From: a virus
Strand: one strand, 5' to 3'
Virus record (IMG/VR): IMGVR_UViG_3300022198_005617
Span: 1 to 20,105 of that record
DNA length: 20,105 nt
How positions within the stretch are numbered: the stretch's first letter is position 1; every line of letters begins with the position of its first letter. Of the stretch, positions 9 through 19,674 are shown piece after piece. A program made the position numbers and the translations under genes. The notes beneath the pieces are model-generated. The model was not told the origin of the DNA. It saw nothing but the letters and a program-made list of their open reading frames with translations, and did no database searches.

Positions 9-506
9 ATGAAGAAACACGATATCGATATCGTTGAAAATATCTATCGCCCACTATCAGAAAAGTATTTTGAGTTCTTCCGCGAAGCTCGTCGTATGAT
101 GCAAGAGGGAGAGATGGAATTTTCCGAACTCGACAAACAGATCCTTGAGACTGATCTTGGTGAGTTTGATTGGTACGAAGATATGGAAGTTCCACTTGAT
201 TGTCCTATGGTTCATATCGAAGAGGAAGAAGGACCAGAACTCAATAAACCAAAACGTGGTGGTTCTAAGAAGTACTACGTCTACGTGCGGAACCCAGATA
301 CAGGAAATATAAAGAAAGTTGAGTGGGGTGATACCACCGGCCTCAAAGTAAAAATTAATGATCCTGCCGCACGTAAATCTTTCGCCGCAAGGCATCAATG
401 TGATACACGGAATGATAAGACCACTGCTTCCTATTGGGCTTGTCGTCTGCCTCGTTACGCAAAGTCTCTAGGTTTACAGGTAGATAATCCGGGGAGTTGG
501 TGGTAA
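9..506 (+). CDS. Conserved phage hypothetical protein, possibly 5'-partial
   Basis: 165 aa from the first ATG. The reading frame stays open to the window edge, so the true start may lie upstream. Residues 1-75 are acidic and rich in E and D. From about residue 80 a basic module begins (KPKRGG, then KKYYVYVRNPDTGNIKKV) and ends in a Cys-containing segment (RKSFAARHQC...YWACRLPRY). I recognise this C-terminal module from many marine T4-like phage proteins, but I know no function for it. Six of its seven serines use TCN codons, like the rest of the left block. The stop codon lies two bases before the ATG of the nuclease gene, which suggests an operon. Confidence 0.7.
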   Translation: MKKHDIDIVENIYRPLSEKYFEFFREARRMMQEGEMEFSELDKQILETDLGEFDWYEDMEVPLDCPMVHIEEEEGPELNKPKRGGSKKYYVYVRNPDTGNIKKVEWGDTTGLKVKINDPAARKSFAARHQCDTRNDKTTASYWACRLPRYAKSLGLQVDNPGSWW

Positions 507-508
507 TA

Positions 509-967
509 ATGTATGAGTATAAATGTAAGATACTAAAGATTATCGACGGCGATACCGTTGATATAGATATTGATCTGGGTTTTGATGTTGTATTATCAAA
601 TCAGAGAGTACGGTTATTTGGGATCGATACACCAGAGTCGAGAACTCGTGATTTAGAGGAAAAGAAGTTTGGATTACTTTCTAAAAACTACATTAAAGGA
701 TACTTACCTGTGGGATCCATTCAGGTTCTTGTCACTGAAAAAGATGATGACCGTGGTAAGTTTGGTCGTATCTTGGGCAAATTTAAAGTATATGACACTA
801 AAGAAGATCGTGAAAACTTCTTGCACGAGATGATGATTCGTGATCATATGGCTGTAGAATATTTTGGTCAGTCTAAAGAAGATATTCAAGATCAACATAT
901 GAAGAACAGACAATTTCTTTATGAGCAGATGGCTGAATTTGTAAAACAGAACCCAGAACTAAGATAG
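509..967 (+). CDS. SNase-like (thermonuclease family) nuclease, copy 1
   Basis: 152 aa from ATG 509; an in-frame TTG at 497 would overlap the upstream stop and is less likely. Staphylococcal nuclease fold: IIDGDTV with D15, then RVRLFGIDTPESR carrying R35, D40, T41 and E43, and GKFGRILG with R87. These match the calcium-binding and catalytic positions of the family. There is no signal peptide, so it should act inside the infected cell as a Ca2+-dependent DNA/RNA nuclease, possibly in host DNA breakdown or virion use (inference). A second family member lies at 15604-16047, differs in serine codon choice and shares the MYEY start. All five serine codons here are TCN. Confidence 0.9.
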   Translation: MYEYKCKILKIIDGDTVDIDIDLGFDVVLSNQRVRLFGIDTPESRTRDLEEKKFGLLSKNYIKGYLPVGSIQVLVTEKDDDRGKFGRILGKFKVYDTKEDRENFLHEMMIRDHMAVEYFGQSKEDIQDQHMKNRQFLYEQMAEFVKQNPELR

Positions 968-975
968 AGCTTTCA

Positions 976-1164
976 ATGACTGTAAACGGCGGAACATATA
1001 GTGGTACAACAGGATCGAACACAAGGTGTGAAAATTGTGGGCATCCTAGTCATTGTGGATCACCACTATATGAAGACAAGTGGTCGGCTTATGGTAGACG
1101 TTTGGGGCACATAGATATTTGTAAACAGTGTAGGTGTGAAGAATGTACGAAAAGAAATACTTAA
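976..1164 (+). CDS. Small Cys-rich putative zinc-binding protein
   Basis: 62 aa. Cysteines are arranged as CENCGHPSHC (C18, C21, C27, with H23 and H26) and CKQCRCEEC (C49, C52, C54, C57), which suggests one or two zinc sites like a zinc ribbon. I recognise no family. The spacing to the upstream nuclease is 8 nt, and its 3' end overlaps the MaoC-like start by 22 nt, so it sits in a tight operon. No strong Shine-Dalgarno is visible. It could bind nucleic acid or protein; this is a guess from the cysteine pattern alone. Confidence 0.6.
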   Translation: MTVNGGTYSGTTGSNTRCENCGHPSHCGSPLYEDKWSAYGRRLGHIDICKQCRCEECTKRNT

Positions 1165-1517
1165 TTACAGAACAAATGCTTCATGCATTTGGTGCTGCTA
1201 CAGGTGATTTTAACCCAATTCATTTTGATGAAAATTTTGCAAAGAGGACAAGGTTTGAAGGTTGTATTGTTCATGGTATGTTGATTGGTGGATTAATCAG
1301 TGCTTCCATGACTGACTGTTATGGTATTGGTACAATATATCTTTCTCAAGACCTAAAGTTTCTTGCACCAGTCAGAGTTGGCGATGAAGTAACAATTAAA
1401 TTTACTGATTACAAAGAAGGCAATAAAGCAACAACGGTAAATACACAAGTGTTTGTTGATGACACTCAAGTTATAAGTGGTGAAGGTAAGATACTAGTTG
1501 GTAATAAGAATGAATAG
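1143..1517 (+). CDS. MaoC/PhaJ-like hot-dog hydratase ((R)-specific enoyl-CoA hydratase family)
   Basis: 124 aa, the usual single-domain length. The N-terminal half carries the MaoC signature GDFNPIHFDENFA (D22, N24, H27, D29) followed by F-x-G-C-I-V-HGM; the Asp and His five residues apart correspond to the catalytic pair of PhaJ enzymes. The family hydrates trans-2-enoyl-CoA to (R)-3-hydroxyacyl-CoA in fatty-acid or polyhydroxyalkanoate metabolism. Such a gene is unexpected in a phage and could be an auxiliary metabolic gene acting on host lipid or carbon storage (inference). It overlaps the Cys-rich gene upstream and the cupin-like gene downstream (ATG inside its last codons), so it is translationally coupled. 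Substrate cannot be told from sequence. Confidence 0.85.
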   Translation: MYEKKYLITEQMLHAFGAATGDFNPIHFDENFAKRTRFEGCIVHGMLIGGLISASMTDCYGIGTIYLSQDLKFLAPVRVGDEVTIKFTDYKEGNKATTVNTQVFVDDTQVISGEGKILVGNKNE

Positions 1518-11798: not shown

Positions 11799-12014
11799 AT
11801 GAAATTTAAAATCACAGTTACTTTAAAAGCAGGAATACTAGATAATGCTGGCAAAGCAGTTACTCGAGCATTGAATACCATGGGCTATGATGAGGTCAAC
11901 GATGTAAGAATCGGCAAAGAGTATTACCTAACTTGCAAAAAGAAAGACATAGCAAAAATAGCTAAAAGTGTTACAAATGAAGTTATGGAAAACTATATTA
12001 TTGAAAAATTATAA
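11799..12014 (+). CDS. purS: PurS, FGAM synthetase small subunit
   Basis: 71 aa, slightly shorter than the usual 80 or so. KFKITVTLKAGILDNAGKAVTRALNTMGYDEVNDVRIGK follows the PurS pattern (strand, LDxxGKA, helix, LGYDEV-x-DVRxGK). PurS bridges PurL and PurQ in phosphoribosylformylglycinamidine synthetase of the purine pathway. No other pur gene is in this window, so it would work with a phage purL elsewhere or with host subunits. It is divergent from the DUF6356-like gene with a 43-bp gap. No clear Shine-Dalgarno is seen; a TATAAAGC box lies at 11782-11789. Confidence 0.88.
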   Translation: MKFKITVTLKAGILDNAGKAVTRALNTMGYDEVNDVRIGKEYYLTCKKKDIAKIAKSVTNEVMENYIIEKL

Positions 12015-14202: not shown

Positions 14203-14224
14203 GCAATGGCGAAGCATAAAACTG

Positions 14225-14253
14225 TTGACAAAAAACCAAAAATATAGTTAAAT
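14225..14253 (+). promoter_or_regulatory. Sigma70-type promoter for tmRNA
   Basis: TTGACA at 14225-14230, 17-bp spacer, TTAAAT at 14248-14253 (TAAATA at 14249-14254 is an alternative with 18 bp, also late-promoter-like). The predicted start near 14260 lies just before the acceptor piece of the tmRNA. Confidence 0.6.
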
Positions 14254-14321
14254 AGTATTGTAACGTTGAAGCACGTTAACGACGGAGTAGACAGCGGGGC
14301 AGTACCGCTCACCTCCACCAT

Positions 14322-14383
14322 AAACACACCGGGCACCAAAAGGTTCCCTTCCTGGGCTGGGTATAAAGAAGCCCGGTGTGTTT
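14322..14383 (+). repeat. Intervening-segment hairpin of the permuted tmRNA
   Basis: Perfect 13-bp inverted repeat (14322-14334 with 14371-14383) in the intervening segment, with a 36-nt loop and followed by a short T run (14381-14385). It brings the two ends of the acceptor stem together and is expected to be removed by tRNA-type processing, leaving two RNA pieces. The T run also gives it a terminator-like look. Confidence 0.85.
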
Positions 14384-14456
14384 TTGGGGGGTGTGATAGG
14401 ATCGATACACGTAATAGGCGCAGTGGAGTTACCGGTAGGCGATGACCGTAAATCAA

Positions 14457-14510
14457 GCAAACTTTATAAACGCCAACGATAATAACGTTGACTATGCACT
14501 AGCCGCTTGA
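14457..14510 (+). other. tmRNA proteolysis-tag reading frame
   Basis: Reads ANFINANDNNVDYALAA then TGA, starting from a GCA resume codon. The ANDNN part and the YALAA end match known bacterial tags; ALAA is the degradation signal seen by ClpXP-type proteases. At 17 residues it is longer than the E. coli tag, mainly through an extra ANFIN at the front. Confidence 0.9.
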
Positions 14511-14577
14511 GGCTAGACGGGGTTTCGCTAGCTGAACCTGGCAACAGAATCAGCTAGCATCTACTTTGGAGCAGGTA

Positions 14578-15603: not shown

Positions 15604-16047
15604 ATGTATGAGTATCGCGCAAGTATTCTACGAGTTGTGGATGGAGACACTGTAGACGTAGATATCGATTTAGGCTTTGGTGTTTGGTTACGAAATGAAC
15701 GTGTACGTATTATGGGCATTGACACACCAGAATCCCGAACCAGTGATAGTATTGAAAAGAAGTTTGGTCTTGCTGCTAAAGCAAGATTAAAATCTTTGCT
15801 GGGAAAGCAAGCAGTTCTTAAAACACAAGTAAACAAAGATGGTGAAGATATGAAAGGCAAGTTTGGCCGTATCCTTGGTGACTTTGTATGCTGGGATGCT
15901 AAAAATGACAGAGAATCAATGGTTACTACAATAATGATTGCCGAAGGACATTGTGTGCCTTATTTTGGCGGCAGCAAAGATGATGTACAAGAACAGCATA
16001 AGAAGAATAGAGAGCGCCTAGTTGCCGAAGGCATTGTAAAACTATAA
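15604..16047 (+). CDS. SNase-like (thermonuclease family) nuclease, copy 2
   Basis: 147 aa with GAGGAG upstream. All active-site elements are present: VVDGDTV (D15), RVRIMGIDTPESR (R35, D40, T41, E43) and GKFGRILG (R89). It is clearly related to the copy at 509-967 (both start MYEY, share DIDLGF, IDTPESRT, EKKFGL and a QEQHKKNR-like tail) but has diverged widely at DNA level. No signal peptide. It likely degrades nucleic acid inside the cell or has become part of the virion. Four of seven serines are AGY, unlike copy 1. Confidence 0.9.
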   Translation: MYEYRASILRVVDGDTVDVDIDLGFGVWLRNERVRIMGIDTPESRTSDSIEKKFGLAAKARLKSLLGKQAVLKTQVNKDGEDMKGKFGRILGDFVCWDAKNDRESMVTTIMIAEGHCVPYFGGSKDDVQEQHKKNRERLVAEGIVKL

Positions 16048-17569: not shown

Positions 17570-18136
17570 ATGCGTATTTTTGAGTTAGAACAACCAAAGA
17601 AAACACGAATAATCATGATTGGCGGACCCGGATCCGGCAAATCAACCTATTCCGAAATACTTTCCGCAAAATTAGATATACCTCATATCTATACCGGTGA
17701 TATGATGCGAGATATTGCCAAACAGGATACACCAATTGGTAAGAAGGTTGCTGGTTTGCTATCAAAAGGAGAATTTGCTCCTATTAACGTGGTTATGAAA
17801 GCTGTACAAAGCAGGGTACAAGAACCTGATGCTAGACAAGGTTATATTTTAGATGGATTTCCTAGGAATCTAGAACAAGCTGAAAAAATGAATCAGCTTG
17901 GAATTGGCTATGATTATGTTGTAAATCTAGACGTGTCAGAAAAAGAAGTACTAAAACGATTATTATCACGCGGTAGAGAAGATGACGTCCCTTCCGTAAT
18001 TAAAAATAGAATAAAAATTTATCATAAAGAAACCGCGCCTTTGTTAGACTATTTTAAAGATAAGATTGTTAACATTAAAGCAGAAGGTGGTACACCAGAA
18101 GAAATAGCCAACAGAATAGCCGGAGAAATCAGTTAA
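17570..18136 (+). CDS. adk: Adenylate kinase
   Basis: 188 aa. P-loop GGPGSGKST (residues 18-26), AMP-binding YTGDMMRD, GYILDGFPRNLEQAEKM, and the arginines of LSRGREDDVPSVIKNRI. The LID is of the short type, without zinc cysteines. It interconverts AMP, ATP and ADP, keeping nucleotide pools open for phage DNA synthesis and supplying NrdA/B. An extra nine-residue leader, MRIFELEQP, precedes the usual start and resembles the N termini of the genes at 11458 (minus) and 18137. The gene is followed without gap by the peptidase. Confidence 0.93.
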   Translation: MRIFELEQPKKTRIIMIGGPGSGKSTYSEILSAKLDIPHIYTGDMMRDIAKQDTPIGKKVAGLLSKGEFAPINVVMKAVQSRVQEPDARQGYILDGFPRNLEQAEKMNQLGIGYDYVVNLDVSEKEVLKRLLSRGREDDVPSVIKNRIKIYHKETAPLLDYFKDKIVNIKAEGGTPEEIANRIAGEIS

Positions 18137-19583: not shown

Positions 19584-19674
19584 TAGGGGGCCCAGGAGTC
19601 GAACCTGGCTTCGGGTCTGCATACCCTACGCTGCCTATGCAGTGGTCAGCGATTCAGGCCCAATCGCACCCCCC
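19584..19674 (-). ncRNA. tRNA-like RNA with two complementary 8-nt loops
   Basis: 91 nt on the minus strand. The 3' half is a clean tRNA: T-arm CCAGG-TTCGACT-CCTGG (19608-19592), then GCCCCCT that pairs with the 5' GGGGGGT (five G-C, two G-U) and an A discriminator; CCA is not encoded. The 5' part has a D-arm-like hairpin, GCGATT/AATCGC (4-6 bp) with a GG-containing loop. The middle hairpin (CTG, bulged A, CC / GGCAG) has an 8-nt loop ACTGCATA, and the next (GGG/CCC) has loop TATGCAGA. No normal 7-nt anticodon loop fits; forcing one gives mismatches and candidates TGC (Ala) or GCA (Cys). The extra arm resembles a class II tRNA. A promoter 15 nt upstream supports transcription. Confidence 0.7.

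What the first reader, a model, noticed from the sequence alone, without database searches (positions are those of the whole stretch)
14225..14560. Phage-encoded circularly permuted tmRNA with its own degradation tag
The sequence directly shows a T-arm, an encoded ACCA, a 7-bp acceptor pairing between 14310-14316 and 14387-14393, the GGATCGA D-loop region, a 17-codon tag ANFINANDNNVDYALAA and a stop in a hairpin loop. Gene order acceptor-then-coding is the permuted form known from alphaproteobacteria and cyanobacteria. A phage copy could rescue ribosomes stalled on cleaved host mRNA or redirect tagged host proteins. The ANFIN extension is a distinctive feature.
Basis: partly seen in the sequence, partly recalled or inferred. 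Interest (0 to 1): 0.88.

Follow-up and report, generated by a model that had tools for sequence, protein, structure and literature searches.

The report
Phage-encoded two-piece permuted tmRNA
An uncultivated bacterial virus carries its own complete copy of the bacterial RNA that frees stuck ribosomes and marks unfinished proteins for destruction; such virus copies are already known, but this one belongs to a large, barely described virus-borne lineage that appears to mix parts of two bacterial types.

Summary
Rfam tmRNA_permuted (116.6 bits, 14260-14510) and alpha_tmRNA (91.5 bits, 14221-14558) both match far above threshold, although ARAGORN misses the gene. The T-arm, encoded ACCA, 7-bp acceptor stem with the G3-U70 alanine determinant, permuted order, stop codon in a hairpin loop and terminal helix are all present. 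T-arm and acceptor pairs covary across 151 phage relatives. A TTGACA-N17-TTAAAT promoter precedes the gene and aligns with those of relatives.

One claim is wrong: the "ANFIN" extension. The resume codon is GCC at 14472, so the tag is the 12-residue ANDNNVDYALAA. Relatives keep T(-5)A(-4) before AND, but the residues upstream are not conserved and some have in-frame stops.

The kind is known: Melnitz-type marine phages carry permuted tmRNAs (PMC9004378). What is new is the lineage. The tRNA-like body is alpha-type, but the PK1 segment holds a 24-nt block shared exactly with beta-type phage tmRNAs. The block is in at least 120 viral contigs and in 0 of 399 Pseudomonadota genomes, though no beta-type genome was sampled. 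No SmpB was found in 48 phage records, so it presumably uses host SmpB.

The parts
14226..14254 (+). dedicated sigma70-type promoter: TTGACA (14226-14231), 17-nt spacer, TTAAAT (14249-14254)
   Evidence: Aligned with the same layout (TTGACA-N17-TATAAA/TTAAAT directly before GTAACGTTGAAG) in relatives L011, L020, L058, L365, L395, L408; a TTGA(C)-type motif lies in the -110..-60 interval of 56/79 distinct phage loci vs 19/79 at a control offset.
14260..14558 (+). permuted tmRNA gene (precursor RNA, acceptor piece first, coding piece second)
   Evidence: RF04321 116.6 bits 14260-14510; RF01849 91.5 bits 14221-14558.
14260..14320 (+). acceptor piece: P2 strand GTAAC (14260-14264), T-arm 14293-14309, acceptor 3' strand 14310-14316, discriminator and CCA 14317-14320
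   Evidence: T-arm covariation in 151 non-redundant phage sequences.
14321..14386 (+). intervening segment, folds into a long hairpin stacked on the acceptor stem (AAACACACCGGGC/GCCCGGTGTGTTT); presumably removed in processing
   Evidence: window -28.5 kcal/mol, z about -5.4; 77% of 208 phage segments have z below -2.
14387..14393 (+). acceptor 5' strand GGGGGTG; expected 5' end of the coding piece (RNase P site inferred)
   Evidence: pairs with 14310-14316, third pair G-U; acceptor pair 5 covaries, 148/151 paired vs 95 by shuffle.
14398..14405 (+). D-loop region AGGATCGA, the alpha-type signature
   Evidence: Rfam alignment to alpha_tmRNA.
14428..14432 (+). P2 3' strand GTTAC, pairs with GTAAC 14260-14264 and ties the two pieces together
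   Evidence: structure line.
14435..14458 (+). 24-nt block GTAGGCGATGACCGTAAATCAAGC in the PK1 region, beta-like and shared by alpha- and beta-type phage tmRNAs
   Evidence: at least 120 viral contigs, 0 of 399 Pseudomonadota genomes (1 mismatch allowed), no BLAST match of a 39-nt query holding it in 50,697 phage records.
14472..14510 (+). tag reading frame ANDNNVDYALAA plus stop TGA; resume codon GCC 14472-14474
14499..14516 (+). hairpin CTAGCC-GCTTGA-GGCTAG with the stop codon in its loop
   Evidence: sequence.
14527..14558 (+). terminal helix GCTAGCTGA/TCAGCTAGC around the core ACCTGGCAACAGAA; 3' end of the coding piece
   Evidence: 29 different helix sequences keep pairing around the same core in phages.

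Best explanation
This is an intact phage ssrA gene of the permuted, two-piece form. Host RNA polymerase would transcribe it from its own promoter at 14226-14254. Host tRNA-processing enzymes would cut out the 66-nt hairpin between the pieces and give an acceptor piece ending in CCA and a coding piece starting at GGGGG, held together by the acceptor and P2 stems. Host AlaRS would charge it through the G3-U70 pair and host SmpB would carry it to ribosomes stalled on cut or non-stop mRNA. Translation then switches to GCC 14472, adds (A)ANDNNVDYALAA and stops at TGA, which frees the ribosome and hands the product to host proteases such as ClpXP. The most likely benefit is a kept supply of free ribosomes while mRNA is being cleaved during infection. 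Shown: gene, structure, tag, promoter-like sequence and comparative conservation. Inferred: transcription, processing, charging, SmpB use, tagging, benefit.
For: Two Rfam models far over threshold. T-arm pairs 1-4 and acceptor pair 5 covary across 151 phage sequences. Terminal helix kept with 29 different sequences. AND- and -LAA ends conserved as peptide with free third codon positions, and U(-5)/A(-4) before the resume codon, matching the E. coli U85/A86 determinants (PMC2481249). Promoter layout conserved. A 99.9% identical contig from another sample record, L009. A minority of tmRNA-bearing loci (about 40 of some 200) also hold nrdA and/or nrdB homologues. No smpB in 48 phage records, consistent with use of the host protein.
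Against: No expression or function data. The alpha_tmRNA score (91.5) lies below nearly all bacterial alpha tmRNAs sampled (mostly 150-310 bits), so a changed function is not excluded. The host is unknown. The window is a 20-kb fragment.
Confidence: 0.8

Rival explanations
1. Decoy: the phage tmRNA competes with host tmRNA for SmpB or AlaRS and so dampens host trans-translation, as proposed for the TLD-only RNA of mycobacteriophage DS6A.
For: DS6A precedent (PMC4131195; PMC11915505); divergent body.
Against: The tag frame, resume signal, ALAA end and stop hairpin are all intact and conserved at the peptide level, which a decoy does not need.
Confidence: 0.08
2. Tag-swapping: the main point is the phage's own tag, used to steer host proteins to a strong protease signal and recycle amino acids, as the Melnitz authors suggest as one option.
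For: 37 of 40 distinct tags of GGATCGA-type phage tmRNAs end in LAA vs 25 of 42 sampled alphaproteobacterial tags, where VAA/IAA/MAA also occur.
Against: LAA is also the commonest bacterial ending; the sample is small and not corrected for ancestry; the host's own tag is unknown.
Confidence: 0.1
3. Passive host gene capture: a recent host ssrA copy or attachment-site fragment without function for the phage.
For: ssrA is a common integration site (PMC9004378).
Against: The gene is complete; its nearest relatives are other phage contigs (alignment score 253 vs at most 83 for sampled bacteria); conserved promoter; many phage lineages carry it.
Confidence: 0.03

Closest known systems
Methylophilales phage Melnitz ssrA and other permuted tmRNAs of marine phages (PMC9004378)
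   Same: Phage-encoded permuted two-piece tmRNA, alpha-type by covariance model (RF01849 106.7 bits, L002), no smpB found in the record.
   Different: Melnitz carries a glutamine riboswitch downstream; none was found in the window. PK1 differs: the window's block was not found in Melnitz. Only a 38-nt DNA match.
Alphaproteobacterial two-piece tmRNA (RF01849)
   Same: Permuted order, D-loop AGGATCGA, GGCAACAGAA terminal core, AND...AA tag.
   Different: Alpha PK1 motif absent (found in 62 of 125 bacterial loci, beta-like PK1 in 0). Only 27 nt from stop to the core, vs 31-33 or 63-65 nt in the bacteria where it could be measured.
Betaproteobacterial two-piece tmRNA (RF01850) and its phage relatives (e.g. 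L149, 161 bits)
   Same: PK1 segment AGGCGAUGACCGUAAAUCAAGCAAA resembles the beta consensus and is identical in L149 and others.
   Different: D-loop and 3' end are alpha-type; the best model for the window is alpha_tmRNA.
Mycobacteriophage DS6A TLD-only RNA
   Same: Phage-borne tRNA-like domain of tmRNA (PMC4131195).
   Different: DS6A lacks the tag frame; the window keeps it.

Membership tests
permuted (two-piece) tmRNA | covariance-model match above the gathering score | tested here: met
   RF04321 116.6 vs 47; RF01849 91.5 vs 50
permuted (two-piece) tmRNA | acceptor 3' half and CCA upstream of the coding half, joined by an intervening segment | tested here: met
   14310-14320 and 14387-14393 with 66-nt hairpin between
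permuted (two-piece) tmRNA | alanyl-tRNA identity: G3-U70, A73, CCA | tested here: met
   sequence
permuted (two-piece) tmRNA | T-arm supported by covariation | tested here: met
   pairs 1-4 exceed every shuffle in 151 sequences
permuted (two-piece) tmRNA | short tag frame after a resume signal, ending in small hydrophobic residues | tested here: met
   ANDNNVDYALAA; U(-5)A(-4)
permuted (two-piece) tmRNA | cleavage into two pieces, alanylation, SmpB binding, tagging | not testable with these tools
   needs RNA work
alpha_tmRNA (RF01849) | alpha-type PK1 | tested here: not met
   beta-like block instead
alpha_tmRNA (RF01849) | alpha D-loop and GGCAACAGAA terminal core | tested here: met
beta_tmRNA (RF01850) | best clan match is beta_tmRNA | tested here: not met
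   alpha_tmRNA is the reported best match for the window
DS6A-type TLD-only decoy | no tag reading frame | tested here: not met
   tag frame intact

The most novel reading that the evidence does not exclude
Aquatic phages maintain their own lineage of two-piece tmRNAs that evolves by exchanging modules (tRNA-like body, PK1, tag) between alpha-type and beta-type phage tmRNAs, independently of any one host; the window is an alpha-type body with a beta-type PK1 block.
Probability: 0.45. Interest if true: 0.62.

Novelty: new member of a known kind. Interest (0 to 1): 0.42.

Why it matters
It adds an environmental lineage, unseen among isolates, to the few described phage permuted tmRNAs, gives clear two-piece anatomy with a conserved promoter-like sequence, and shows that a standard annotation program (ARAGORN) misses 14 of 51 phage tmRNAs of this D-loop type. 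The mosaic PK1 suggests phages can mix tmRNA modules, and the question of what phages gain from trans-translation becomes testable in a laboratory ssrA-deletion strain.

Tried and rejected
(1) 17-aa tag with ANFIN: rejected. (2) The GC-rich hairpin plus T-run in the intervening segment as an intrinsic terminator inside the gene: rejected, since most phage relatives have the same acceptor-stacked hairpin and only 26% have a run of four or more T near its end. (3) Phage smpB: none in 48 records. (4) Host identification: NrdA relatives are spread over many phages, the 623-aa neighbour has no match among sequenced phages, the closest sampled bacterial tmRNAs are distant, so the host stays unknown. 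(5) A bacterial beta-type control set: the 249-genome phylum sample gave no beta_tmRNA over cut-off, so whether the PK1 block is phage-specific or simply beta-derived stays open. (6) ARAGORN tRNA at 19584-19674: not supported as an ordinary tRNA.

Full report
Identity. The window holds a permuted tmRNA gene on the + strand. Rfam's tmRNA_permuted model matches 14260-14510 with 116.6 bits (threshold 47) and alpha_tmRNA matches 14221-14558 with 91.5 bits (threshold 50). ARAGORN reports no tmRNA there, and in a test on 140 phage loci it missed 23, the window among them; for the D-loop type of the window it missed 14 of 51.

Anatomy. CACCTCC 14310-14316 pairs with GGGGGTG 14387-14393; the third pair is G-U, the alanine identity pair (general knowledge of AlaRS). 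ACCA is encoded at 14317-14320. The T-arm is 14293-14309, the alpha-type D-loop AGGATCGA is 14398-14405, GTAAC 14260-14264 pairs with GTTAC 14428-14432, and the coding piece ends in the helix GCTAGCTGA/TCAGCTAGC around ACCTGGCAACAGAA. Between the pieces lies a 66-nt segment that folds into a long hairpin continuing the acceptor stem; most phage relatives have such a hairpin, so I do not read its T-run as a terminator.

More than chance. In 151 non-redundant sequences the T-arm pairs 1-4 and acceptor pair 5 are kept through compensating changes, well above column shuffles; the other acceptor positions were largely fixed by the search pattern and prove nothing. The terminal helix is kept in 29 different sequence versions.

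The tag. In 72 non-redundant phage relatives the tag begins A-N-D/E, preceded by T at -5 (66) and A at -4 (69); the five upstream residues vary, 22 have an in-frame stop within ten codons and 6 within five. U85 and A86 at the same places set the frame in E. coli tmRNA (PMC2481249). For GCC 14472 the window has T(-5)A(-4); for the GCA of 'ANFIN' (14457) it has A(-5)T(-4). The tag is therefore ANDNNVDYALAA. Its -LAA end is conserved as peptide while third codon positions vary.

Promoter. TTGACA 14226-14231, 17 nt, TTAAAT 14249-14254 stand directly before the acceptor piece. Relatives with otherwise different upstream DNA have TTGACA-N17-TATAAA or TTAAAT in the same register; the -35-like motif occurs in 56 of 79 distinct loci against 19 of 79 at a control offset (the control is crude).

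Distribution. L009, from another sample record, is 99.9% identical over 9.3 kb. The next closest tmRNAs are in phage contigs such as L020, L043, L058 and L011, several of them also with nrdA and nrdB nearby. In all, 38 of the fetched loci match the window's NrdA and 44 its NrdB, a minority of the tmRNA-bearing loci. Sampled alphaproteobacterial tmRNAs are distant: best alignment score 83 against 253 for L043. No smpB was found in 48 phage records, one of them the complete Melnitz genome; most are fragments.

Known or new. Permuted tmRNAs in phages are published: Melnitz and others, with 53 two-piece genes in 18,146 phage genomes in 2021 (PMC9004378); the tmRNA database lists 79 phage sequences (PMC11915505). 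The window is a new member of that kind.

The mosaic lead. The window's PK1 region reads AGGCGAUGACCGUAAAUCAAGCAAA, like the beta_tmRNA consensus (alignment), not like the alpha PK1, which 62 of 125 bacterial alpha loci show by a simple motif while none shows the beta-like one (the rest were not classified). A 24-nt piece of it is exactly shared by at least 120 viral contigs, some with alpha-type D-loops (GGATCGA) and many with beta-type ones (GGTTTCGAC); the exact sharing is partly by selection, because the scan asked for exact matches, but 8 alpha-type and about ten beta-type loci with the block had been found independently of it. It is absent from 399 Pseudomonadota genomes at one mismatch, and a 39-nt query holding it had no match in sequenced phages. 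No genome with a true beta_tmRNA was in the sample, so a bacterial beta source is not excluded.

Function. Most likely ordinary trans-translation in the service of the phage, with host AlaRS, SmpB and proteases. Decoy and tag-swapping readings are less likely but open. Nothing here shows expression.

Noticed in passing
window 19584-19674, - strand; L473 272-384: tRNA-like element with a good T-arm, 5-bp D-stem and long variable arm but a badly paired anticodon arm (ARAGORN: 4-base anticodon actg; Rfam only 18 bits to tRNA-Sec). A 113-nt copy, 93% identical, sits in a viral contig that shows no other DNA match to the window.
   Followed up: partly
L015, L039, L057, L077 (viral contigs): Phage permuted tmRNAs with an odd tag, ALAFKPEVTVPVSIFADRELVAV, that ends in LVAV instead of LAA.
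   Followed up: no
L013, L017, L036, L063, L072: Phage tmRNA tags of 22-30 residues, e.g. ANLKASGNVTFVNFGAKLPTNDQVFALAA, much longer than the usual 10-14.
   Followed up: no
window 1143-1517, 11799-12014, 17570-18136: Metabolic genes in the phage fragment: MaoC-like dehydratase, PurS-like FGAM synthase subunit, adenylate kinase.
   Followed up: no
window 497-967 and 15604-16047: Two staphylococcal-nuclease-like genes in the same 20 kb.
   Followed up: no
phage loci L002-L208 and bacterial loci L234-L333: Distinct tags of GGATCGA-type phage tmRNAs end in LAA more often (37/40) than sampled alphaproteobacterial tags (25/42).
   Followed up: partly
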